IMG/VR virus record: IMGVR_UViG_3300007735_000717
Location: 1-39,787 of that record
Reading direction: 5' to 3' (one strand)
Length of the DNA: 39,787 bases
From: a virus
The stretch's first letter is position 1; each line of letters opens with the position of its first letter. Shown here one piece after another: positions 22,620 to 36,264 of this stretch. The translations under genes and the position numbers were made by a program. Below the pieces are notes generated by a model. That model searched no databases and was not told the DNA's origin. It saw only the letters and a program-made list of their open reading frames with translations.

Positions 22620-25330
22620 TGTCCCTAATCACCACCAGCGTTGCCAACCTTGTCGGGGGAGTCTCTCAGCAGCCCTCGTCCCTCCGTCTGCCTAACCAGT
22701 GCGAACGCCAGGAGAACGCAGTGGCATCGGCTTTCGAGGGTCTTATCAAGAGGCCGCCGGCTGAGCATGTGGCTGTCCTGAAGTCGAGTGGATCAGAGAT
22801 CACCTACGACTCGGCCTATGTTCACATGATCGACCGTGACGCTGCTGAGCGTTATGCGGTGGTCTTTGGTCGTACCAACAGTGGATCCTCGGCTTACATC
22901 AAAGTCTACGACATCAATGGCGTCGAGAAGACTGTGTCCACACCTGATGGCCTGGGGTACATCAACGAAGCAGACATTGATACCAAGTTGCGCTGCGTGA
23001 CTGTGGCTGATGTGACCTTTGTTCTCAACCGCAATAAGACCGTTCTGTCGTCTACCACAAAGTCGCCATACACCCGAGGGCTTACTGCGCCAACGGGGAC
23101 TAACGCACACCAGCAGGCACTTCTTTGGGTTAGGCAGACAAACTACGGAAGAGACTACAGTTTCACAATCATTGCCAACGGTGTTCCGTACAGTTACTTC
23201 TACACAACTGGATCGGCAGCGGCTGATGCGATTGGAACTGACCTGATTGCTACAAAGCTGGCTGCTGGATACTCGTATTCAGGAAACGGCCTCGCGAACG
23301 CCTCGTATTCAACTGGGGCAACGACCATTGTCATCAAGAGCCACACTGGTACTACACCCGCCGCAAATCATAAGTTGGCCGGCCAAGGTATTGCACCAGA
23401 GACGACTGTTCTCACGCTGTCCACCAACGCCGGCCTGCACACGGTAACACTGAGTAAACCCCTTATTGGACCGCTGGCAGTCGATGCCCCAGTCTTTGTC
23501 TGGCAGCCAACAGTAAATGTGCATCTCGGGTATGACGCAAATCCTATTGCGAATATCGGGGTGAAGACATCCAACAACATCTTGTGGGTGTACGCGGACA
23601 ACTACTCTCTTTCTTTCTCCATTCAGGTGTCTGATGACTTTGGTGGAGAGGCGTTGATCCTCAGCACTACCGAAGCCTCGTCTTTCGATAAACTTCCTAA
23701 TTCAGCCCCACATAACTACCTTGTAAAGGTGGTTGGATCTGGCGGCACAGCGGCGGATGATTATTGGGTAGTGTTCAAACAGACCGGGACTACGAGCACT
23801 ACTGAACTTCGCCCAGGATCTTGGCTGGAGTCCATGGCTCCAGGCCTGGAATACAAGCTGGACGACTCCACGATGCCCCATGTCTTGATCCGTCAGACTG
23901 ACGGTACATTCATGTTCAAGAAGGCCGATGGACTCAACGGCTATCCAGAGTTTGACTGGGAAGACCGAGTGGTCGGAGACGATGACTCAAGCCCCTTCCC
24001 GTCCTTCGTGGACTACAAGATCCGAGATATCAACTTCTTCAAGGATCGTCTTGTGATTCTGTCTGGTGAGTACATCACCCTGAGCGAGACTGGGAACCCA
24101 TTCAACTTCTGGATCAGCACGGTCCAGAACCTCGTAGACTCCGACTCAATCGAAGTCGGTTCGACTCAGCCGTCAGTCATGGATTTCAAGTCCAGCGTGG
24201 TCTTCAGCGACCGACTGGTTGCCTTTACGCCGCAGACCCAGTTGACCTTGAAGGGCGAGAACATCCTGAGTGCACGCACGGTGTCTCTTACGACCTCGGC
24301 TGCCTACGAGAACACTGACTGCCAGCCTGTGATCTCGGGAACCAACATCTTCTTTGCGTTCAACCGAGGCTCCTTTGCGGGCATCCGAGAGATGTTCATC
24401 TCCAACAGCTTGGATGTGCAGTTCGACGCTACAGATCTTACTGTGCAGGTTCCCCAGTATCTCCCCGGTAAGATCGTGAAGATCGCGGCTTCTACCCACG
24501 AGAACTTCTTGGTCACCTTGTGCAGCGGTGAGCGATCCACGCTGTTCGTCTACAAGTACTACAACCAAGGCGACCAGCGCATCCAGTCAGCATGGTGCAA
24601 GTTCACTTTCCGTGACGCCTACATCCTCGACATGCAGTTCTTGGATACCGTTCTCTACATCGTGATGAAGCGCGGGTCGTCCACGGTCATCGAGAAGATT
24701 CGTCTGGAGAGCGGCCTCAAGGACACCAACAGCACCTATGTGACGACATTGGACCGCCGGCTGGACCAGAGCGGAGTTACGGCCACCTACAACTCTGGGA
24801 CTGGCCTGACGACCTATGCTCTGCCGTACACCATTACGACCAATGCGTCCATGGCTGTGGTCACGAAGACGGGCCTGAGTCTGGCGACTACCCAGGCGTC
24901 TAGTACAACCCTGACTGTCCCCGGTAACTACACGACCAATGTCTGGATCGGCGACAAGTACACCATGGTGTACCAGTTCTCTGAGCCTACCCTGAAGACC
25001 CCAGTGCAGACCGGGGGCATCGCCACCATTGCTGCTGGTCGATACCAGTTGCGCTATGGAACGATCTCCTACGGCAACTCTGCGTTCTTCCAGGTCAAGG
25101 TTCAGGTGGACGCTGGCTCTACCTTCACCTACGACTTCACTGGCCGCAATGTGGGTGACATCAACAACCTGATTGGATCAGTCTCCATCGCCTCCGGCGA
25201 CTTCAGATTCCCCGTGTATTCTCGTAACACCCAGGTGAAGATCTCGGTAGAGAATGACTCCCCGTTGCCTAGTAACCTGTTGTCCGCTGAATACGAAGCC
25301 CTCTTCTCCGAGCGATCTACCCGTCGTTGA
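22619..25330 (+). CDS. Tail tubular protein B, gp12-like
   Basis: 903 residues (T7 gp12: 794). It starts MSLITTSVANLVGGVSQQPS, an almost invariant start of this family, and has QENAVASAFEGLIKRPPAEH and FFKDRLVILSGEYITLSETG. It forms the tail nozzle. The extra length compared with T7 lies in the first 450 residues. Part of it (about 23080-23790) is richer in A+T with TACTTC/ACA/GGA codons, suggesting a more variable or exchanged outer domain. Confidence 0.94.
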   Translation: MSLITTSVANLVGGVSQQPSSLRLPNQCERQENAVASAFEGLIKRPPAEHVAVLKSSGSEITYDSAYVHMIDRDAAERYAVVFGRTNSGSSAYIKVYDINGVEKTVSTPDGLGYINEADIDTKLRCVTVADVTFVLNRNKTVLSSTTKSPYTRGLTAPTGTNAHQQALLWVRQTNYGRDYSFTIIANGVPYSYFYTTGSAAADAIGTDLIATKLAAGYSYSGNGLANASYSTGATTIVIKSHTGTTPAANHKLAGQGIAPETTVLTLSTNAGLHTVTLSKPLIGPLAVDAPVFVWQPTVNVHLGYDANPIANIGVKTSNNILWVYADNYSLSFSIQVSDDFGGEALILSTTEASSFDKLPNSAPHNYLVKVVGSGGTAADDYWVVFKQTGTTSTTELRPGSWLESMAPGLEYKLDDSTMPHVLIRQTDGTFMFKKADGLNGYPEFDWEDRVVGDDDSSPFPSFVDYKIRDINFFKDRLVILSGEYITLSETGNPFNFWISTVQNLVDSDSIEVGSTQPSVMDFKSSVVFSDRLVAFTPQTQLTLKGENILSARTVSLTTSAAYENTDCQPVISGTNIFFAFNRGSFAGIREMFISNSLDVQFDATDLTVQVPQYLPGKIVKIAASTHENFLVTLCSGERSTLFVYKYYNQGDQRIQSAWCKFTFRDAYILDMQFLDTVLYIVMKRGSSTVIEKIRLESGLKDTNSTYVTTLDRRLDQSGVTATYNSGTGLTTYALPYTITTNASMAVVTKTGLSLATTQASSTTLTVPGNYTTNVWIGDKYTMVYQFSEPTLKTPVQTGGIATIAAGRYQLRYGTISYGNSAFFQVKVQVDAGSTFTYDFTGRNVGDINNLIGSVSIASGDFRFPVYSRNTQVKISVENDSPLPSNLLSAEYEALFSERSTRR

Positions 25331-25788
25331 GCCAGCTCATACAGAGATCCGCGACACTGATCGATTGCCACTATGTGGCCAATCACATTCGAGCCGAGGA
25401 CAGGGCTGAGGTGGCCTCATTGGGTAAGACTCCGTTGGACTCCATCTTGCAGGGGTACATCTACGGGGACAAGAAGTGGGCCTTGCTGATTGAGGATGAG
25501 CCAATCGCCATCTGCGGGACTGTTCCTATTACCAAGGACATCGGAGCGATCTGGCTTCTTGGTACGGACAAGTTGTTCACTCATAAGGTGGCCTTCATTC
25601 GGCGGAACAAGGAACTGCTATCCGCGGCTTCGGCTGGCTACGAGATGCTCTGTAACATCGTGGACTCGAGGAACGAACTCCATATCCGTTGGCTTCGTTG
25701 GCTCGGGTTCTCCTTCATTCGTTCGACGACCGAGAGGTCTGTCGATGGAACCCCTTTCTACGAGTTTGCAAAACTAACCCATGTGTGA
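25327..25788 (+). CDS. gp13-like internal virion-associated protein, GNAT-type
   Basis: TTG start overlapping the tail tube B stop; 153 residues (T7 gp13: 138). WALLIEDEPIAICGTVPIT, then GAIWLLGTDKLF and HIRWLRWLGFSFIRSTTERS have the shape of the phage gp13 family (DUF2833), related to GNAT acetyltransferases but without evident acetyl-CoA motif RxxGxG. In T7 gp13 is needed for assembly of the internal core. Overlaps the next gene by eight bases. Confidence 0.85.
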   Translation: MSQLIQRSATLIDCHYVANHIRAEDRAEVASLGKTPLDSILQGYIYGDKKWALLIEDEPIAICGTVPITKDIGAIWLLGTDKLFTHKVAFIRRNKELLSAASAGYEMLCNIVDSRNELHIRWLRWLGFSFIRSTTERSVDGTPFYEFAKLTHV

Positions 25789-26464: not shown

Positions 26465-28753
26465 ATGTCACAGATCCCCAACGCCGCATACAACCCTACC
26501 GCAACGCCCGTCTCCAACTCGGTGTCGTTTGCCGGCTCGGCTCCAGTTCCTCAGCAGGTTCAGATTGGCGCAGGATGGGGAGACCTTGGTGCAGCCTTCT
26601 CTGCCTTCAGCCAGACCTTGGCCGGCGTCTACACCCAGGTCACCAAGATTGATCGCCAGAAGGCCATGGAGGAAGGCGAGCAGAAGATGCTGGCCAACCG
26701 GACCAACTACCGAAAGATGGTTGAGTCTGGTCAGATCGACCCGATTGAGAACCCTTGGGAAGCCCTTGGAGCCGCTTCTGCTGACGCCACGATGCACGCT
26801 GACCGATGGAAGGCCAAGGTGCGCGAGGAGTACCAGCAGCGCGTCATGACTGACCCAGGGTTCGCCACGAGCGTGGGGGCTGCTGAGGACTTCATTGATC
26901 AGCGCATGAAGACGGAACTGGAAAGCGGCTTGGACAATCCTGTGTGGCAGCGCACTTTCATGAAGGACACCTCGGCTTTCGTGACCAACCTGTCGATTGC
27001 ACACGCTGATGAGGTGGTCAAGAATCGCCGCCTCCGGGCCGAAGAGGGTTTGGTAACTGGAATTCTGTCTGACTACAAGGATTGGAAGGCGGTGAGCGGA
27101 GATACTCAGATCCCCCTGCATGAGCAGTTCAACACTCGCAAGGATGAGTACTACCAGACCTATGGATCTCAACTTACTCAATCCGCCCTGACGAAGGTGT
27201 TCATGAAGCTCCGAGAGGAGAGTGGGGATGATCCGGCAGTACTGGATGAACTGGACAAGGTGACTCTTGGTACTGGCCCATTCACTTCAACCGCCGCTTA
27301 CAAGGCCGCTGAGGTGGCGAATGCAGATGATCTATCCAGAGCGCGTCAGTCACGAGATGCCAAGGAAATGTCTGCTTGGGTATCTAATCAGCTCCTGTCT
27401 AATGGAGATGTAAGCCCAGAGGCGATGAAGAGGCAGCTCAAGGCTATTCGTCCCGGAATCGACGACGCTGAGGCTGCACAGGTTTCCGCTGCGGTAAGCA
27501 AGAGCATTGACCCCATGCGAACTCAGATCTACGATGGGTTTAGGTCGAATCTGGTCTCTGCCACTTCTAAGCAGATGCTCAAGGCGTACATGCCTGATGC
27601 CAATGGAAACATCCCTATGGATTTTGCCTCCATCAAGGCTAGGGATCCGAAGCAGACTGAGATTTCTCTTATGGGCCAACTCAACGCAACCAGGGCGCGC
27701 CTTGGTCTTCCGCTGTCTAAGGACGCCTCAGAGGAGCAGGCCAAGATTCTCCACACTCTTGCCGTTGTGTCCGCATCCGACGAGGTTCGTAAGGCGTCTA
27801 TGGGCCTCAAGGACCAGAACGGAAACCCGGATTACGCGGCTCGCGCTGGAATGAACACTACTTGGGCTGTCCAAGCTGGTACTCAGAATCCAGACATGCC
27901 TGAGATTGAAACGGCAGTTCAACTCTTCAGGCAAAGCCCTTCTCCAGAGGCGGCAAAGAGTTTCATCCCTTCGATGAATCTTGGTTGGCAGACCTATAGG
28001 GCTGCAAAGGCTCGAGGAGCTTCCCCTCAGTCCATTGGGATGACTGAAGAGACCGCCGCATTCTTTGAGTCCATGGACTCAACCCTGTCTAGCAACGGCA
28101 GCATCGAAGCAGGAATGATGAATGCTTCCTCTCAAGTTCCAAGGGGAACCCCTATTCCAACGATGATGACGCCGGATGACATTGCTACTTCGGCCGTTAC
28201 TCATTTCAACGGATACTGGACCAGCAAGGGCACGGCTGTTTGGCAGGCATCCCAAGTTCAAGAAGACTTGGTATCGCACATGTCCAGCAGCGCAAATCGC
28301 ATGCAGGGCAAGGACGCAAGGATCGCTGAGGTTGAGAAGTTCCTGACCAAGAATGCTCTTGTCCTAGACAACGGTACAGTCGTGATGAAACCCGAGTTTA
28401 CTACGGCGGCAACACAGTCTTTCGCAAGTGAAGGGCCGTGGAATACGCTCTCCTCCGCATACAAGAAGGTTCTGAGTCAGAAAGACCCGACTATTGAGGG
28501 CGTTCGATTTAGGTCTCTTGCCAATGGCAAGTACTATGTTCAGGTGTACCGAGCAGACAAGTCGTTTAGCGAACTCTCATCGGACGCCATTGCGGAACTG
28601 AATGCTAACGGCCTCAAGGCTTCGTTCTCTGTTGATGAAGCAAACGATGTGTACATCAAGAACAAGGTGAAGCAGCAAGATGCTGCGGAAGAGATTAGAA
28701 AGAACATCGATTTGATGAATCCGCAAATGATGCGGATTGGTGGACCCTTCTAA
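26465..28753 (+). CDS. Internal virion protein C, gp15-like
   Basis: 762 residues (T7 gp15: 747). It starts MSQIPNAAYNPTATPVSNSV, includes GWGDLGAAFSAFSQTLAGVY, is helix-rich throughout, and ends IDLMNPQMMRIGGPF. In T7 gp15 forms the periplasmic tunnel with gp16 during ejection. The second half (from about 27170) has more A+T in third positions than the first. The assignment rests on order, length and start pattern. Confidence 0.9.
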   Translation: MSQIPNAAYNPTATPVSNSVSFAGSAPVPQQVQIGAGWGDLGAAFSAFSQTLAGVYTQVTKIDRQKAMEEGEQKMLANRTNYRKMVESGQIDPIENPWEALGAASADATMHADRWKAKVREEYQQRVMTDPGFATSVGAAEDFIDQRMKTELESGLDNPVWQRTFMKDTSAFVTNLSIAHADEVVKNRRLRAEEGLVTGILSDYKDWKAVSGDTQIPLHEQFNTRKDEYYQTYGSQLTQSALTKVFMKLREESGDDPAVLDELDKVTLGTGPFTSTAAYKAAEVANADDLSRARQSRDAKEMSAWVSNQLLSNGDVSPEAMKRQLKAIRPGIDDAEAAQVSAAVSKSIDPMRTQIYDGFRSNLVSATSKQMLKAYMPDANGNIPMDFASIKARDPKQTEISLMGQLNATRARLGLPLSKDASEEQAKILHTLAVVSASDEVRKASMGLKDQNGNPDYAARAGMNTTWAVQAGTQNPDMPEIETAVQLFRQSPSPEAAKSFIPSMNLGWQTYRAAKARGASPQSIGMTEETAAFFESMDSTLSSNGSIEAGMMNASSQVPRGTPIPTMMTPDDIATSAVTHFNGYWTSKGTAVWQASQVQEDLVSHMSSSANRMQGKDARIAEVEKFLTKNALVLDNGTVVMKPEFTTAATQSFASEGPWNTLSSAYKKVLSQKDPTIEGVRFRSLANGKYYVQVYRADKSFSELSSDAIAELNANGLKASFSVDEANDVYIKNKVKQQDAAEEIRKNIDLMNPQMMRIGGPF

Positions 28754-28755
28754 AT

Positions 28756-31700
28756 ATGACCCAATTTCAATACGGACAGTCGGTCACCAGTGACCCGATG
28801 ATTCCTCCGTTCCAGGTTCCAAGCCCCGCACCTCTTCCACCCACCCCACTAACCGCTGATCAAGAGACTTCGGCAGCGATCAACGCTGAGAAGACTGGTC
28901 CAAATCTGTGGACCGCCCTCACTCAGGGAACGACTCTAAACGACATTGCGGACTGGGGCGTTCGCAAGTGGATGGGGGGAGAAACTGAACCTGGCTGGAG
29001 GCAGAAGCACGACATCAAGACGCTGTTCGAGGGGGTCGCTCCACAGTTTCACGATGATTTGCTGAGCGAAGCGTCGTACTTGGATGCGCTCCATGTCAAA
29101 GACTCCATTGCCATGAAGATGGCAGCCGCTGACAAGGTGGCTCAATACGGCGCAGCCGGAGCCTTTGCCCAGTTCGGTATGGGCATTGTTGAGTTTGCTC
29201 CGCTCATGTCGGTTCCCGGATCCGGGGCTGCCATGGCTTTCATGGCCGGAGGAACTGACGCTGTCTCGGTAAGCAACGCTGCCCGTGTCGCTCTGGCCTC
29301 TGGTCGAGCTGCGGAAGCCGCAAAGATCGCCAGTCGAATCGGAGTCCTTCGCCGGCTGGCTTACGGCGGCATCTCAGGCTCTGCTCAGGGTGTAGCGTTT
29401 ACCGCGGTAGACGGGGTGTTCAATCCGACCGTGGAAGGCGAGGATGTCCTTCATGCTGCCTACTGGGGTGCTGGTCTGGGCGGAGGGGTCAACGCATTCT
29501 TCGGCAAGGGCATTGTGCGGGACTACATGGTCAAGCACGCCCTGAAGTACGAGAAGCAACTTCAGACCGCTGGCAAGGAACTCGCTGTCCGCTTCAACGC
29601 GGACAATGTGCTTGAGCAGGTGGCTCAGCGATTCGGCATCGCGGAGGCTGACGCCAAGAACATCATCGTTGGTGCTCGTCTCCTTGAGAACCCCGTGGCT
29701 GGCACTGGCCTCGAGGTTGCCGTTGCTGGACCCAAGGCCCGCCTTCGTCGCGGTCAAGTGGTCATGGAAGAGACCATTATTACCGATGCGGCGGGCGTGG
29801 AGAAGGCCAAGGTTCAGCATCTGAATGACGGCAAGATCGTCATCCGTGCGCTGACTGAGTCCAAGAGTGGCGACTCCTTTGTCCGTAGCATGGCCGAGAC
29901 TCTGCGTGCCCGCATCTTCACTGAAGAGAACGGCCTGCTGAGTAACCGCGAAGTGTTGATCATGGATGCATTCACCCGTGGTGACCTGCCGGCTATCTCC
30001 CGTCTCGTCCCGGTTACCGAGACGGTTGAGGCCGGCATTGGTCCCCACCCCAAGGACATGCGTCTGGGCCTGAACCTCACCGACAGTGAGCGTCAGACTG
30101 TTACTCAATCACCCACCTTGGCGGCAGCCCGTCGTGATCTGGGCCGTGCACGGTCTCTCCTCCAGCAGGCCATCGAGAAGTTCCAGAATGTCATGGACGA
30201 CGCCAGTGCCATGCTTACCGAGGCTGAGACCGAGGAAGCCTTGGCTGCCCATGAGTTGGCCATGTCCAATACGCCGGAGTACAAGGCCGTCCTGAAGGCC
30301 AGTGCTCGGGCCAAGGACGCGGCTAAGAAGGTGGCTGAACTTGAGGTTCCCGAAGTCACAGAGAACATCAAGCGGATCATCGAGGCTCGCCGTGCGGTGC
30401 TGGAGAAGCTCCAGGCTCAGCAGAAGGCCACCCGTGGCTTCCAGAAGACCGAACGCATTGCCACGGCCACCTTGAATGAGGCCGAGGAAATGGTCCGTAA
30501 GGCCAAGGAGGCGATAGACAGTAAGGGACCGGAGACGCAAAACACTCCTTCAACAGTTGATGTTGTTGGCTCAAAAGGTGAGAGACTTCAGTGGGTTCGT
30601 GCATCAGATCCCGGACAGCAAGAACTTGTTTATCTCCTCAAGAGTGGAAAGGATACTGTCGGCTCTTTCCAGTTTATCTGGGACAGTAAAAACAGAGCTT
30701 TTAGACCGCAGGCCACTCTTGGTGTCAACATCCGTAAGCAATATCAAGGTCAAGGTCTCTACGGTAAGTTGCTAAAAGAACTGTCTAAGCATGTAGATCT
30801 AGGCTCCACATCTACTTCAGAAGCACTGGGTACACAGGTCAATGCTGTCAAAGTCTGGAAGAAACTTGGGGCATCAACAGAAAAGTTAAAGGGGAAAAAC
30901 AAGTTTGTTGATTCAGCGGGGAATGTGGAGGCTTTCTTCCTAAGAAGGACTTCTAGCCTTCAGAATGAACTTGCAGCCGCCGAGCAGGTGCTGAGTGAGT
31001 TCCGTTCTCGGGAACTGGTCCAGCAGTTGGGACAGGCGGCTCACGAGAAGCGGCAGGCTTATGGCCTCGCTAGGAAGGAACTCCAGGATCTCAATACCGC
31101 TGTCGCCGAGAGCAAGCGTCTCAAGCGTCGGATCAGCGCAGACATCAAGAAGAGCCTTCAGGAGGCCGCCGACAAGGAAGCGAAGGCCGCTGATGAGCTG
31201 GCCCAGGCTGAGGAGGCTCTGATCAAGGCTGACCGAGTGGCCAAGGAGGACGCCTACGCTGCTGCTCGCAAGCTGGCCAATAGCATCGAAGAGGATGCCG
31301 CCAGTTCGGCTCAGAATGCCAAGAACAGCGTGGCTGACGCCGAGGCCGCCTTGGCTGACGCTGAGATGGCTCTGGCCATGGCTGACCCCGAGTTCATGAT
31401 CAAGAAGCGCACGGCTCCCCTGAGCAACGAGGAGAAGACTCGGTTCCAGGATGCCTTCATCAACTGGCTGACCAAGAACGAGATTCCCGCTGAAGTCCCG
31501 GTGAACGCTCGTGCGGAGTTCCAGTCGGCCATGCAGAAGCTGAAGGAGACCCTGATGCGGGTCTATGCAGATGCAACCGATCCTCGCATCGGTGATGTTC
31601 CGGTCAGCCCTGAGGTTGACCTGTTCTTCCGAGAGATCTTCATCAAGCACTCCGAGATGAAGGCGAAGACTGTGATGGCGGCTGAGCAGACTTCGATGTA

Positions 31701-34320
31701 CGCACGGATTGCTGCCATTGCATCTGGAGCAGCTGTTCCTGAGAAGCCGGCTAAGGCTGAGGTTACTCCGAAGTCTCTGGACCCAGACTGGAAGGACAAC
31801 AACCGGGCCGATATCCGTCTGCTCGGTTTCGACATTACTCGTGCTCCGGGCATGCGGTTCCTGAACCAGGCTCTGGCCTCGATCAACTCCAAGATCGGTG
31901 CAGCCCAGTGGCTTGGTGAGCGCATGATGTGGTCCCGCATTGGCCTGATTGATCCCAACGGCAAGATGGTTCCTCAGCGGGCCACCATCAGCGAACTCTG
32001 GACTCGCATCCGTAACCCCATGGAACACCGCCTCAAGCGGGCGTTCGACAAGGGGTACAACGAGTACACGACTGGCAAGGAGTTCACCAAGATCAACCCG
32101 GCCGAGCGCACCAAGAACGCCTTCCAGCACAAGGCGAAGGAGAAGTTCAGCATTGAGGTCTACAACGAGATCCTCAAGCCCGGTTCCTCTGAGAGTGCAG
32201 CAGTCAAGACGACAGCCAAGGCGTTTGCTGAGCACTTTGACCGCATGCGGAAGATTGCGTTGGAGATGGAACTCCCAGGGTTCTCTGCTCTGGACACCAG
32301 CGTTGGCTACTTCCCCCGTATGTGGAAGTGGCAACTCCTCGACGACTTCCTCGCTAACAAGCAGAGCGTGGCTGATCTGACCAAGTTGATCAAGAAGTCC
32401 ATGACGATTGAGATTGTCGAGAGCGCGGATGATCCGCGAATCGCTCAGGGACTTGCCCTGACCGAGGACGGAGCATGGGCACTCGCTAATTACACGGCGG
32501 AACGCCTCAGGTCTCTGGCTCGCGGCGAGCAGAAGAACGCCTATCTGGACATGGATGAGATCATGCTTGCCGTGCTCAGGGAGCATGTTCCTCCTCCGCG
32601 ATCCTCTGCCGGCGTGAAGGGTACTCCTCACGGTAACCGTCGCATCCCGATGGATGTCACGATCAAGGTCAAGTTGGACGATGGTCGTATCGTATCGCTG
32701 TCCGACTTCGTCTCTAACGATGTCGTCCACGCAACCGAAACCTACAATCGTTCGGTCTTTGGCGCGATTGCTGAGAAGCAGTTGGTCGGAGAATTCCGTG
32801 ATCAGTTGATCGCCCGTGGAAAGATGACGGCTGAGGAGGCGGGGACGAAGATCACGAAGTGGAGCGATGTGATCACCTATGTGAAGTCCTCGGCTGAAGA
32901 GGGCCGCTATGTGACCACCAAGGAAGTCGAGCGAACCGTGGCCTCTCTTGAGGAGCTGTACGCACTTCTTCGCCATTCTCCGATGCCATCGATCTTGGGA
33001 GAAGTCTTCAGCCCCATGGCGGGTCGGCTCATGAAGCTTGGCTACCTCCAGAACGGGCAGGCGTTCGGCCTTGCTCAGTTCCTCGAGGTGTCCCGCATCA
33101 TTGGTCGAACCTCGGCTGCTTCGGTCATAAAGCAGATGCCCATCGTTCAGGAACTCGCTCAGGCTGCCCGTCGTGGTGAGATTCCCAAGGAGCAGTTCCC
33201 GCTGCTGCACTGGATCGATCAGGCTTTGGGAACGGGCGGTGATCGCCTGCGCCGAACGACCCTGTCCATGATTGACTCGCGTCTGGAGAAGTACTCCACG
33301 ACGACTCAGCAAGGCTGGTGGCGCAAGGCTGAGAACTGGTTCCGCAACTGGGTGGATCCGAACCTCAACGAAGCCTCTACCGTCTTCTCCGATGTCACTG
33401 GTCTGGCTCCGCTGACCACGGCCACTCAGCACCTGATCGCCACCTCGATCATTCAAGAGATGTACGACGGTGCTCTGCTTGGCAAGGCCATCTACTCCGA
33501 TGCACTGCTGGCTCAGTGGGGCGTGACTCGGGCTGAGTTCGAGATCATGGTGTCGTCGCTGCGTAAGACAGCTAAGGTGAACAAGGTAGGTCGAGTGATC
33601 GACTTTGATCACACGCTGTGGGACCAGAATATCTACGGTCGTTTCTTGGACTTCATGGAGCGTGGCGTTGTGTCCACCATCCAAGATCCTCCGACCCGCG
33701 GCGACTTTGCAAAGCCGCTGTGGAACGATCTTGGTCGCCTGTTCCTCCAGTTCCGCTCGTTCAACATCAAGGGCATCAACAACTTCTTGCTGACCTCGGT
33801 GCAGCGTCGAGATGCGCGTCTTGCCGTGGAGTACTCGGTGTCCATGGGCCTTGGCCTGATGACTCAGATGGCTCGCAAGGCCATCTATGCCCCAACCTAC
33901 AAGGACGAGAAGGATCAGAAGAAGTACTGGGAGACTTCATTCTCTCCCCAGGCTCTGACTGGCATGGCTCTGTCTGGCCCTACTGAGAACTGGCTCTTCC
34001 TCGCCACGCTGGATCCCATCGCCCAGTTCACCACGGGAAGTCCGATGTTCAGCCAGAGCGTTCGGTACTCAGACCGAGGTGGAAGCGTGCTGGATGTCAG
34101 CGCAACTCCGGCTGCCGGCGTGATCAAGTCTGTGTACGACTCTGTCTCTGCCCCAGTGCAGTCCCTGCTCATGGAAGATCGTCAGTACACCCAAAGCGAT
34201 CTCAACAATGTCACCTCCATGATCATCGGTCGTAAGTTCATGGGACTCAATCAGGGATTCAACTACATCGAGAAGTGGCTCGGCTCCGGTCTGCCCAAGG
34301 AAAAGAAGCCGAAGGACTGA
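28756..34320 (+). CDS. Giant internal virion protein D, gp16-like, with inserted domain
   Basis: 1854 residues, against 1318 for T7 gp16. The N-terminus (Pro-rich, then LWTALTQGTTLNDIADWGVR) shows no lysozyme-like transglycosylase motif such as T7 gp16 carries. Residues about 460-900 are long charged coiled coils, interrupted by a GNAT-like domain (about 592-733). The C-terminal half (from about 1010: DIRLLGFDITRAPGMRFLNQ, FSALDTSVGYFPRMWK, RLFLQFRSFNIKGINNFLLT) matches the ejection-protein core of this family. It forms the inner-membrane part of the DNA ejection conduit. Palindrome site 16 is inside (coding AFTAVDG). It ends 30 bases before the tail fibre gene. Confidence 0.9.
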   Translation: MTQFQYGQSVTSDPMIPPFQVPSPAPLPPTPLTADQETSAAINAEKTGPNLWTALTQGTTLNDIADWGVRKWMGGETEPGWRQKHDIKTLFEGVAPQFHDDLLSEASYLDALHVKDSIAMKMAAADKVAQYGAAGAFAQFGMGIVEFAPLMSVPGSGAAMAFMAGGTDAVSVSNAARVALASGRAAEAAKIASRIGVLRRLAYGGISGSAQGVAFTAVDGVFNPTVEGEDVLHAAYWGAGLGGGVNAFFGKGIVRDYMVKHALKYEKQLQTAGKELAVRFNADNVLEQVAQRFGIAEADAKNIIVGARLLENPVAGTGLEVAVAGPKARLRRGQVVMEETIITDAAGVEKAKVQHLNDGKIVIRALTESKSGDSFVRSMAETLRARIFTEENGLLSNREVLIMDAFTRGDLPAISRLVPVTETVEAGIGPHPKDMRLGLNLTDSERQTVTQSPTLAAARRDLGRARSLLQQAIEKFQNVMDDASAMLTEAETEEALAAHELAMSNTPEYKAVLKASARAKDAAKKVAELEVPEVTENIKRIIEARRAVLEKLQAQQKATRGFQKTERIATATLNEAEEMVRKAKEAIDSKGPETQNTPSTVDVVGSKGERLQWVRASDPGQQELVYLLKSGKDTVGSFQFIWDSKNRAFRPQATLGVNIRKQYQGQGLYGKLLKELSKHVDLGSTSTSEALGTQVNAVKVWKKLGASTEKLKGKNKFVDSAGNVEAFFLRRTSSLQNELAAAEQVLSEFRSRELVQQLGQAAHEKRQAYGLARKELQDLNTAVAESKRLKRRISADIKKSLQEAADKEAKAADELAQAEEALIKADRVAKEDAYAAARKLANSIEEDAASSAQNAKNSVADAEAALADAEMALAMADPEFMIKKRTAPLSNEEKTRFQDAFINWLTKNEIPAEVPVNARAEFQSAMQKLKETLMRVYADATDPRIGDVPVSPEVDLFFREIFIKHSEMKAKTVMAAEQTSMYARIAAIASGAAVPEKPAKAEVTPKSLDPDWKDNNRADIRLLGFDITRAPGMRFLNQALASINSKIGAAQWLGERMMWSRIGLIDPNGKMVPQRATISELWTRIRNPMEHRLKRAFDKGYNEYTTGKEFTKINPAERTKNAFQHKAKEKFSIEVYNEILKPGSSESAAVKTTAKAFAEHFDRMRKIALEMELPGFSALDTSVGYFPRMWKWQLLDDFLANKQSVADLTKLIKKSMTIEIVESADDPRIAQGLALTEDGAWALANYTAERLRSLARGEQKNAYLDMDEIMLAVLREHVPPPRSSAGVKGTPHGNRRIPMDVTIKVKLDDGRIVSLSDFVSNDVVHATETYNRSVFGAIAEKQLVGEFRDQLIARGKMTAEEAGTKITKWSDVITYVKSSAEEGRYVTTKEVERTVASLEELYALLRHSPMPSILGEVFSPMAGRLMKLGYLQNGQAFGLAQFLEVSRIIGRTSAASVIKQMPIVQELAQAARRGEIPKEQFPLLHWIDQALGTGGDRLRRTTLSMIDSRLEKYSTTTQQGWWRKAENWFRNWVDPNLNEASTVFSDVTGLAPLTTATQHLIATSIIQEMYDGALLGKAIYSDALLAQWGVTRAEFEIMVSSLRKTAKVNKVGRVIDFDHTLWDQNIYGRFLDFMERGVVSTIQDPPTRGDFAKPLWNDLGRLFLQFRSFNIKGINNFLLTSVQRRDARLAVEYSVSMGLGLMTQMARKAIYAPTYKDEKDQKKYWETSFSPQALTGMALSGPTENWLFLATLDPIAQFTTGSPMFSQSVRYSDRGGSVLDVSATPAAGVIKSVYDSVSAPVQSLLMEDRQYTQSDLNNVTSMIIGRKFMGLNQGFNYIEKWLGSGLPKEKKPKD
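29397..29412 (+). promoter_or_regulatory. Operator-like palindrome inside gp16-like gene, site 16
   Basis: GTTTACCGCGGTAGAC. The most downstream full copy in the window; no further full copies were seen between 29413 and the end. Confidence 0.57.
30530..30955 (+). other. GNAT-like domain inserted within the gp16-like protein
   Basis: Residues about 592-733 of the gp16-like protein. The segment changes from the GC-rich, charged coiled coil to AT-richer codons (AAA, TTA, AGA, GTT, GAA). It encodes a globular fold: LQWVRASDPGQQELVYLL, GSFQFIWDSKNRAFRP, LGVNIRKQYQGQGLYGKLLK (like GNAT motif A, Q/RxxGxG), then VKVWKKLGAS and AFFLRRTSS. The coiled coil resumes straight after (LQNELAAAEQVLSEFR). 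It looks like a recently acquired acetyltransferase-type module carried into the virion. Confidence 0.8.
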
Positions 34321-34350: not shown

Positions 34351-36264
34351 ATGGCTCTTTCATACACCTCCTATACCGCAACCTCCGGCCAGACCGACTT
34401 CGCCTTCTCCTTCCCGTATCTGTCCACCAGTCATGTCAAGGTGCAGATCAACGGTACGGATACAAGCGCGTACACCGTGGTCACTTCGCCTTCTACCAAG
34501 GTGGTTCTGAATAGCGGTGCAACCTCCGGCCAGATCGTGAAGGTGTATCGACTGACCCCTGGTCGATCTGTGTCCCCGAACAATGTCAATCTCGTTGACT
34601 TCGTGAACGGCTCGGTGCTGTCTGAGGAGGATCTGGACAAGAACGCAAAGCAACTGCTCTACCTGATCCAGGAGTCCGATGACACTGGCGGTGGAGCCAT
34701 GCCTTACGATTCCACGATTGGAGCTTGGAACGCCAGTAATGGAGGCTCTTCAAAGAAGATCTCTAGCGTGGCCACTCCAACAACGGCCACCGATGCCGCC
34801 AATAAGTCGTATGTGGACACCAAGTTCACTACGGATGCCCTCATTCTCAACGGTGGGCAATGGGACGCAGAGAATCTCAAGATCCAGAATCTTGCTGCTC
34901 CGGCTGCCAACAGTGACGCGGCGACCAAGGCATATGTGGACACCAAGTTCACGACTGACGCACTGATTCTCAGCGGAGGTCTTTGGGATGCCGAGAATCT
35001 GAAGATTCAGAATGTTGCCACTCCGCAGAATGCCAATGATGCTGTTACCAAGGCATATGTAGATGCCCTCAGTCTCTACGGCGGCTCGGCCATTCAGCCT
35101 CAGTCTTGGACTTTCTCGATCAACGGAACTACTGATTGGACGGATCAGGGCGGCGGCGTGGATCCAGCAAGTCGGTATCGCTGCACAAAGCAACTTGCCG
35201 GCCTTTTGTCGTATGACGCCAACACTTTGATTGTGTCTTTTGGTGGAGTTCTTCAGACTCCTGGGCCGGCCTATACGCTCTCTAATGACAACCTGAGCCT
35301 GTACGCCGCTTCCGCAACTGCCGGAACGCTGACTGTTCGTAACTTTGGCGTCTCTCGTAGCGCGTTTGCCCCCGCAACCGCTTCGACTCTTGGCGCAGTA
35401 AAGATTGGCAGCAACATCACTGTTCAGCAGGATGGAACGATTAGCGGACCAAATCTGGCTACTGTTGCGACTAGCGGATCCTACGCTGATCTAACTAACA
35501 AGCCGACGATCTCCACTGCTGGAGCGAGCGGCTCGTATGCCGATCTGACGAACAAGCCTACCCTTGGAACTTCGGCTGCATTGGATGTGCCCGCAACCGG
35601 GAACGCAACGACTGCACAGGTTGTCAAGGGGACTGACACGCGGCTTACCGATGCCCGTACTCCAACGACTCATAGCCACGCTATTGCAGATGTCACGAAT
35701 CTTCAGACCACTCTGGATGCCAAGGCTGCGCTGGCTGGAGCCACTTTCAGTGGTGCTCCTAAGTATGCCGCTGATCCTGGAGATGCCAATACGCTAACGC
35801 GGAAGTCATATGTGGATGCGTTTGTAGGCTCAGCTATTGCGGCGCAAATTGAAGAAACTGTCTATACCGCAACAACTACAATTCAGGTAGAGAATTTGAC
35901 TGTAGGTAAATTGTACCTGTACATTGCAAAGCCAACAGCAGCAAATGGGGCTGGAAGTTCAACAACTGGTCCCGGAGCAGTCACTAATGTGACTCTTACA
36001 TTGTCGGCTCCGGGGTCCGCTGGATCTAGTGCAACCGCTTTCTACATGGGACGCACACACACTACTAATCAAGCTAATACTACCCCAAACGATGTTGGTC
36101 CAGCAATTCTTGGAGCATGGATTTACAACCAAGCCAGTGCGGGTACTGCTGGATATCCAAATCCAACAACTGTAACAATTGCTTCAACTGGTTTTTCCGT
36201 AGGAACAAACAACGCTGGTGTAAAACTTCATCCATCCTACGCATTGGTGATGCGCCTTACATAA
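34351..36264 (+). CDS. Tail fibre protein, gp17-like N-terminus
   Basis: 637 residues (T7 gp17: 553). Residues 1-115 (SYTSYTATSGQTDFAFSFPY, VYRLTPGRSVSPNNVNLVDF, EEDLDKNAKQLLYLIQE) match the T7 gp17 N-terminal tail-attachment domain. Then two 41-residue repeats, a collagen-free stem with repeated SYADLTNKPT motifs and LTDARTPTTHSHAIADV, typical of phage fibres. The last about 145 residues (from 35830) are Thr/Ala/Gly-rich with lower-GC codons, as expected for an exchangeable receptor-binding tip. It determines host attachment. Confidence 0.93.
   Translation: MALSYTSYTATSGQTDFAFSFPYLSTSHVKVQINGTDTSAYTVVTSPSTKVVLNSGATSGQIVKVYRLTPGRSVSPNNVNLVDFVNGSVLSEEDLDKNAKQLLYLIQESDDTGGGAMPYDSTIGAWNASNGGSSKKISSVATPTTATDAANKSYVDTKFTTDALILNGGQWDAENLKIQNLAAPAANSDAATKAYVDTKFTTDALILSGGLWDAENLKIQNVATPQNANDAVTKAYVDALSLYGGSAIQPQSWTFSINGTTDWTDQGGGVDPASRYRCTKQLAGLLSYDANTLIVSFGGVLQTPGPAYTLSNDNLSLYAASATAGTLTVRNFGVSRSAFAPATASTLGAVKIGSNITVQQDGTISGPNLATVATSGSYADLTNKPTISTAGASGSYADLTNKPTLGTSAALDVPATGNATTAQVVKGTDTRLTDARTPTTHSHAIADVTNLQTTLDAKAALAGATFSGAPKYAADPGDANTLTRKSYVDAFVGSAIAAQIEETVYTATTTIQVENLTVGKLYLYIAKPTAANGAGSSTTGPGAVTNVTLTLSAPGSAGSSATAFYMGRTHTTNQANTTPNDVGPAILGAWIYNQASAGTAGYPNPTTVTIASTGFSVGTNNAGVKLHPSYALVMRLT
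34810..35055 (+). repeat. Two tandem 123-base coding repeats in the tail fibre
   Basis: Two 41-residue units starting YVDTKFTTDALIL and containing WDAENLKIQN, at 34810-34932 and 34933-35055, with the start of a third (YVDA) at 35056. Both keep frame. They are probably trimeric beta-stem repeats. Confidence 0.9.

What the first reader, a model, noticed from the sequence alone, without database searches (positions are those of the whole stretch)
30530..30955. GNAT-like domain spliced into the ejection protein
Base composition and codon use change sharply at both borders, and a globular sequence with an acetyl-CoA loop pattern (YQGQGLYGKLL) interrupts a coiled coil that then resumes. The phage may inject an acetyltransferase into the host with its DNA, an early effector that could modify host transcription or defence proteins. 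The domain gives part of the extra length over T7 gp16.
Basis: partly seen in the sequence, partly recalled or inferred. Interest (0 to 1): 0.8.

Follow-up and report, generated by a model that had tools for sequence, protein, structure and literature searches.

The report
Acetyltransferase-like domain inside phage ejection protein
A T7-like phage has recently gained an acetyltransferase-like module in the middle of the protein it injects with its DNA, and a 92% identical sister protein still shows the empty site; the phage may therefore deliver an enzyme into the cell at the moment of infection, although activity is unproven.

Summary
Confirmed as a real, in-frame, lineage-specific domain insertion. 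ORF 28756-34320 (1854 aa) is a T7 gp16-type ejection protein. At 30521-30957 it holds 437 nt that a 92%-identical homologue (L001) lacks, having 35 nt there; three more distinct homologues (43-44% identical) also lack it. The segment is the lowest-GC stretch of the coding sequence examined (45% against 58±2% in the rest of the gene), with codon usage about 7 SD outside the gene's range. It matches GNAT acetyltransferases: leading Pfam, NCBIfam, PHROG and Foldseek-PDB matches are GNATs, and the profile-profile score is 29.9 against at most 17.3 in 150 shuffles. All family scores stay below curated cut-offs, and the structure model has low confidence. AlphaFold places the domain between long helices. 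On T7 gp16 it maps to the gp16-C region that a published model puts in the host cytoplasm, where acetyl-CoA is available. Two motif positions are unusual, so catalysis is uncertain. Most likely it is an injected effector domain; target unknown; no donor found. An unrelated phage contig carries a methyltransferase-like insert at a comparable place, hinting at a cargo site. New variant of a known kind (injected, "polyvalent" phage proteins).

The parts
28756..34320 (+). gp16-type internal virion / ejection protein, 1854 aa
   Evidence: phrog_342 'internal virion protein with endolysin domain' E 2e-51 over residues 858-1818; gene order nozzle, gp13-like, gp14, gp15-position ORF, gp16, tail fibre as in T7
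29149..29253 (+). hydrophobic stretch, residues 132-166, candidate for the TMH-I region of T7 gp16
   Evidence: Kyte-Doolittle scan; a similar stretch stands out in L001, L008, L012 and L013
30073..30520 (+). helical region before the insert (last long helix about residues 507-589)
   Evidence: AF2 model with four homologues; conserved with L001
30521..30957 (+). insert: 437 nt in place of 35 nt in L001, in frame at both ends
   Evidence: blastn and protein alignment with L001; absent also from L008, L012 (= L018) and L013; low GC and foreign codon usage
30562..30942 (+). GNAT-like domain proper, about residues 603-729
   Evidence: Pfam Acetyltransf_10/7, NCBIfam rimI, PHROG acetyltransferase, Foldseek PDB, hhalign
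30745..30762 (+). motif A (pyrophosphate loop) Q-G-Q-G-L-Y, residues 664-669; the last position is Tyr where GNATs usually have Gly/Ala
   Evidence: sequence; profile alignment; comparison with bacterial GNATs
30841..30873 (+). motif B-like N-A-V-K-V-W-K-K-L-G-A, residues 696-706; Trp701 where GNATs usually have Tyr
   Evidence: hhalign register 61-110 of the domain; comparison
30958..31455 (+). helical region after the insert (helices from about residue 722 to 876)
   Evidence: AF2 model; alignment with L001
25327..25788 (+). gp13-like ORF (phrog_308; family described elsewhere as GNAT-like); not a source of the insert
   Evidence: PF11090 E 7e-4, phrog_308 E 1e-36; no BLASTP similarity to the insert

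Best explanation
A GNAT-fold domain of about 125-135 aa was recently inserted, in frame, into the length-variable helical region of this phage's gp16-type ejection protein. Shown: the insertion, its foreign composition, its absence from relatives, its GNAT-type sequence. Inferred: gp16 is packaged in the head and ejected with the DNA as its T7 relative is; the domain threads through with it, refolds in the cytoplasm as part of the gp16-C hub, and uses host acetyl-CoA to acetylate a protein or other amine near the entering DNA before any phage gene is expressed. The target is unknown. A host protein such as a defence factor or RNA polymerase is plausible but untested.
For: Empty-site sister at 92% identity and three further distinct homologues without the segment. 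GC, GC3 and codon shift confined to the segment. GNAT families head the lists in Pfam (16.7 bits), NCBIfam (rimI) and PHROGs. hhalign against a profile of Pseudomonadota GNATs scores 29.9 (P 1e-4), against at most 17.3 for 150 shuffles, in the right register over motifs A and B. Foldseek of the single-sequence model returns mostly acetyltransferases in the PDB, led by lysine acetyltransferase Rv0998 at E 0.012. AF2 with homologues shows helix, alpha/beta domain, helix. The site maps to T7 gp16 residues ~500-558, inside gp16-C 411-1118, which PMC8954989 models as the cytoplasmic hub. A parallel methyltransferase-like insert lies at a comparable place in another ejection protein. GNATs are already described in phage proteins predicted to be co-injected (PMC5512222).
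Against: All family scores lie below the curated cut-offs; the model has low confidence (pLDDT 45). Motif A lacks the usual last Gly/Ala (36 of 42 sampled GNATs have G/A, none Tyr) and the usual Tyr is Trp (27 of 27 sampled have Tyr). Only one sequence carries the insert, so selection cannot be tested. Injection rests on homology to T7; the T7 mapping is at low identity, and the cytoplasmic placement of gp16-C is itself a model.
Confidence: 0.55

Rival explanations
1. The domain has a GNAT fold but is catalytically dead, serving as a bulky structural or binding module of the ejection protein or riding along neutrally in a tolerant helical linker.
For: Motif A and the usual Tyr position are both altered. 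The helical region is length-variable among relatives. The gp13-like protein encoded nearby, from a family linked to GNATs in the literature, shows no recognisable CoA loop in its sequence, so inactive GNAT-like folds may already be used in such phages.
Against: The CoA-loop core Q-x-x-G and the motif B region are retained; phage GNAT-like proteins with the same Tyr in the loop exist as separate genes next to terminase (YQGKGFYKKL in L021/L022).
Confidence: 0.27
2. The enzyme is active but acts late, in the producing cell or inside the particle, acetylating gp14/gp15/gp16 or other phage proteins during core assembly.
For: gp16-type proteins are made late and pass through the cytoplasm before packaging (general knowledge of T7); stand-alone GNATs occur in the structural modules of related phages (PMC10142737 ORF39; PMC6775973).
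Against: A late enzyme need not be fused to an ejected protein; the sister phage has an intact gene without it.
Confidence: 0.12
3. The segment is a metagenome assembly chimera.
For: The window is an IMG/VR record, and no second copy of the insert was found.
Against: Both joins are in frame, the 437 nt have no stop, the flanks align cleanly to L001, and the joins leave a whole GNAT-like domain between two helices.
Confidence: 0.03
4. The segment is foreign but not a GNAT; the resemblance is chance.
For: No score over a curated cut-off; the HMMER score against the small home-made profile (6.7) only narrowly exceeds the best of 1000 shuffles (5.5).
Against: Independent libraries and the fold search all put GNATs first; hhalign score far above shuffles.
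Confidence: 0.03

Closest known systems
T7 gp16 and Autographiviridae internal virion protein D
   Same: Gene order, C-terminal homology (phrog_342), hydrophobic region before the central part, expected ejection with the DNA
   Different: Here 1854 aa against 1318; no transglycosylase domain detected at the N terminus; long helical region; the GNAT insert
GNATs of phage 'polyvalent' proteins (Iyer et al. 2017, PMC5512222)
   Same: GNAT domain inside a larger phage protein predicted to enter the host with the DNA
   Different: Those GNATs occur with ART or other domains or in T4SS-borne proteins; here a single GNAT interrupts a T7-type gp16 and the empty site is known. Family identity with those GNATs was not tested
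T7 gp13-like proteins (PF11090 / phrog_308; SIO1 pc40 in PMC6775973; G11 ORF39 in PMC10142737)
   Same: GNAT-like protein of the structural module of T7-like phages; this phage has a gp13-like ORF at 25327-25788
   Different: Stand-alone gene; no sequence similarity to the insert
Methyltransferase-bearing ejection protein in L066 (and partly L053)
   Same: Enzyme-like domain inserted at a comparable place of a gp16-position protein, lower GC than its surroundings, absent from relatives
   Different: Another phage lineage and another enzyme class (PF13489-like)

Membership tests
GNAT superfamily | Sequence profile match at curated threshold | tested here: not met
   PF13673 16.7 bits (cut-off 23.6), PF13508 15.0 (27), rimI 14.1 (86.4)
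GNAT superfamily | Homology above chance to GNATs | tested here: met
   hhalign 29.9 against at most 17.3 in 150 shuffles; GNATs first in Pfam, NCBIfam and PHROGs
GNAT superfamily | Motif A Q/R-x-x-G-x-G/A | tested here: inconclusive
   Q-G-Q-G-L-Y: first and fourth positions kept, sixth is Tyr
GNAT superfamily | Fold (mixed sheet split by the CoA site) | tested here: inconclusive
   pLDDT 45 model, but Foldseek PDB hits are mostly GNATs, best E 0.012, probability 1.00; strands and helix in plausible order in a second model
GNAT superfamily | Acetyl-CoA binding and acyl transfer | not testable with these tools
   needs biochemistry
T7 gp16 ejection proteins | Homology of the C-terminal part and gene position | tested here: met
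   phrog_342 E 2e-51; between the gp15-position ORF and the tail fibre
T7 gp16 ejection proteins | N-terminal lytic transglycosylase domain (present in T7, not in all relatives) | tested here: not met
   no SLT match in the window protein; SLT was found in 2 of 33 compared proteins
T7 gp16 ejection proteins | Packaged in the head and ejected into the host | not testable with these tools
   inferred from T7 (PMC8954989)
Phage polyvalent proteins | Several disparate effector domains in one injected polypeptide | tested here: not met
   only one effector-like domain found in the 1854 aa
Polyvalent-protein GNAT families of Iyer et al. | Membership in one of their two RimI-like families | not tested
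   their alignments were not available; rimI is the weak top NCBIfam match

The most novel reading that the evidence does not exclude
The start of gp16-C in short-tailed phages is a cargo site: unrelated enzyme domains (GNAT here, methyltransferase in L066) are inserted at comparable positions, so that the ejection machine doubles as a delivery vehicle for interchangeable early effectors placed beside the entering DNA.
Probability: 0.3. Interest if true: 0.82.

Novelty: new variant of a known kind. Interest (0 to 1): 0.6.

Why it matters
If the domain is active, this phage delivers an acetyltransferase with one of the first proteins that reach the cytoplasm, earlier than any expressed counter-defence gene. 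The 92%-identical sister without the domain makes a clean natural comparison, and the position gives a testable claim about which part of gp16 faces the cytoplasm. The parallel methyltransferase insert suggests that ejection proteins should be scanned generally for inserted enzymes.

Tried and rejected
Donor search: no relative of the domain in 50,697 phage records (E<0.1; only chance-level hits at E<10), in plasmids, by pattern scans of viral and genome contigs, or in about 785 Pseudomonadota genomes at E<=1e-3. L003 was a false hit, on the strand opposite to the predicted genes. A two-motif DNA pattern scan of genome contigs gave 12 chance matches, none a GNAT. L021/L022 are phage GNAT-like genes with a similar loop but no close relation. 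Origin from the phage's own gp13-like gene: rejected, no similarity. Tandem or direct repeats at the borders: none. The first GNAT profile was built with some loci on the wrong strand and was redone. Searches by gp15 and by the gp16 alignment added no further carrier. Of the 33 long proteins scanned from the gp16 region, only the window's matched PF13673; the tally listed only the first 25 of 45 families.

Full report
Observation. The window is a 39.8-kb virus record with the gene order of a T7-like phage. ORF 28756-34320 encodes 1854 aa whose C-terminal half matches phrog_342, 'internal virion protein with endolysin domain', at E 2e-51; it lies after a nozzle protein, a gp13-like ORF, a gp14-like ORF and the ORF in the gp15 position, and before a T7-type tail fibre. 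GC falls from about 60% to 44% at 30500-30950 and rises again. In 435-nt windows the segment has GC 0.453 against 0.584±0.017 in the rest of the gene (minimum 0.552), GC3 0.40 against 0.706±0.045, and a codon score about 7 SD lower; it is lower in GC than any of 684 other windows in 20 genes of the phage.

Empty site. A contig in the viral collection, L001, encodes a homologue of 1720 aa that is 92% identical and lacks the segment. The DNA aligns up to window 30520 and again from 30958; 437 nt in the window face 35 nt in L001. Homologues L008, L012 (identical to L018) and L013, 43-44% identical, also lack it. On a tree the window and L001 are sisters, so one gain in the window's lineage is the simplest history, and the foreign composition agrees with a recent gain. 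The helical region around the site varies in length among relatives, which suggests it tolerates change. No direct repeats flank the insert.

Identity of the insert. Scanned on its own, residues 597-736 give Acetyltransf_10 (E 0.007), Acetyltransf_7 (0.03), Acetyltransf_3 and FR47 in Pfam, rimI in NCBIfam (0.04) and two acetyltransferase families in PHROGs (0.07 and 0.13). Each is below its cut-off where one exists, but the leading matches are of one kind. In a single-genome search PF13673 has E 2e-4 at this place and matches nothing else in the record. A profile made from GNATs of 31 Pseudomonadota genomes matches the insert by hhalign with score 29.9 (P 1e-4), over motifs A and B in the right order; the best of 150 shuffled inserts scores 17.3. 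The plain HMMER score against the same profile is weaker evidence: 6.7 against 5.5 for the best of 1000 shuffles. AlphaFold of the domain alone is of low confidence (pLDDT 45), yet Foldseek against the PDB returns mostly acetyltransferases, led by the lysine acetyltransferase Rv0998 (E 0.012, probability 1.00); the best viral matches are also annotated N-acetyltransferases. A second model, made with four homologues, shows a long helix to residue 589, strands and helices at 601-679, and helices resuming at about 722. I take the GNAT assignment as about 90% likely.

Active site. The loop reads Y-Q-G-Q-G-L-Y-G-K-L-L. The Q-x-x-G core is kept; the last position of Q/R-x-x-G-x-G/A is Tyr, whereas 36 of 42 sampled GNATs have Gly or Ala there and none Tyr. 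In N-A-V-K-V-W-K-K-L-G-A a Trp stands where 27 of 27 sampled GNATs with a recognisable motif have Tyr. Phage GNAT-like genes next to terminase in L021 and L022 share the loop Tyr. Activity is therefore plausible but not safe to assume.

Where it would act. In T7, gp16 is ejected with the DNA; its N-terminal part lies in the periplasm, residues 411-1118 are modelled as a ring in the cytoplasm, and two putative membrane regions flank that part (PMC8954989). Alignments through intermediates place the insert at T7 residues about 500-558, i.e. within the modelled cytoplasmic part. This matters because acetyl-CoA is found in the cytoplasm. The alignment is at low identity and the T7 topology is itself partly a model, so this step is inference. 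Unlike T7 gp16, this protein shows no transglycosylase domain.

Comparison with what is known. GNATs inside phage proteins predicted to be co-injected were described by Iyer and colleagues (PMC5512222). Stand-alone GNAT-like proteins occur beside the internal virion genes of T7-like phages (PMC6775973, PMC10142737), and this phage has a gp13-like ORF at 25327-25788, unrelated in sequence to the insert. The papers I searched and read did not describe a GNAT spliced into a T7-type gp16. A parallel appeared in the comparison set: the gp16-position protein in L066 carries a methyltransferase-like insert at about residues 470-690 (PF13489 E 1e-5 on the piece) that its relatives L058, L063 and L095 lack, with lower GC (0.373 against 0.431±0.021), mapping to T7 residues about 464-481. 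Its relatives in phages include a protein encoded near the portal gene of CRP-738. Two cases do not prove a cargo site but make it worth testing.

Verdict.

Noticed in passing
L066:4666-9693 (residues ~470-690); L053:3-401: Methyltransferase-like domain inserted in a gp16-position ejection protein, lower GC than its surroundings and absent from relatives L058, L063, L095.
   Followed up: partly
window 35640-36200: 3' part of the tail-fibre gene is also unusually low in GC and GC3 (down to 0.46 and 0.30), as expected for exchange of the receptor-binding part.
   Followed up: no
window 25327-25788: gp13-like ORF (phrog_308), TTG start overlapping the nozzle gene; its family has been linked to GNATs in the literature, but no CoA-loop motif is evident.
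   Followed up: partly
window 28756-34320, N terminus: No transglycosylase (SLT) domain detected in this gp16, and no Pfam match to one in the ORF at the gp15 position (26465-28753); how peptidoglycan is opened is unclear.
   Followed up: no
L021:318-833 (-); L022:11235-11750 (-): Phage GNAT-like genes beside the terminase gene with the loop YQGKGFYKKL, sharing the unusual Tyr of the window's domain.
   Followed up: partly
window 30940-33684 (-): A 914-aa open frame on the opposite strand of the gp16 gene; probably a by-product of high GC at third codon positions, not examined further.
   Followed up: no
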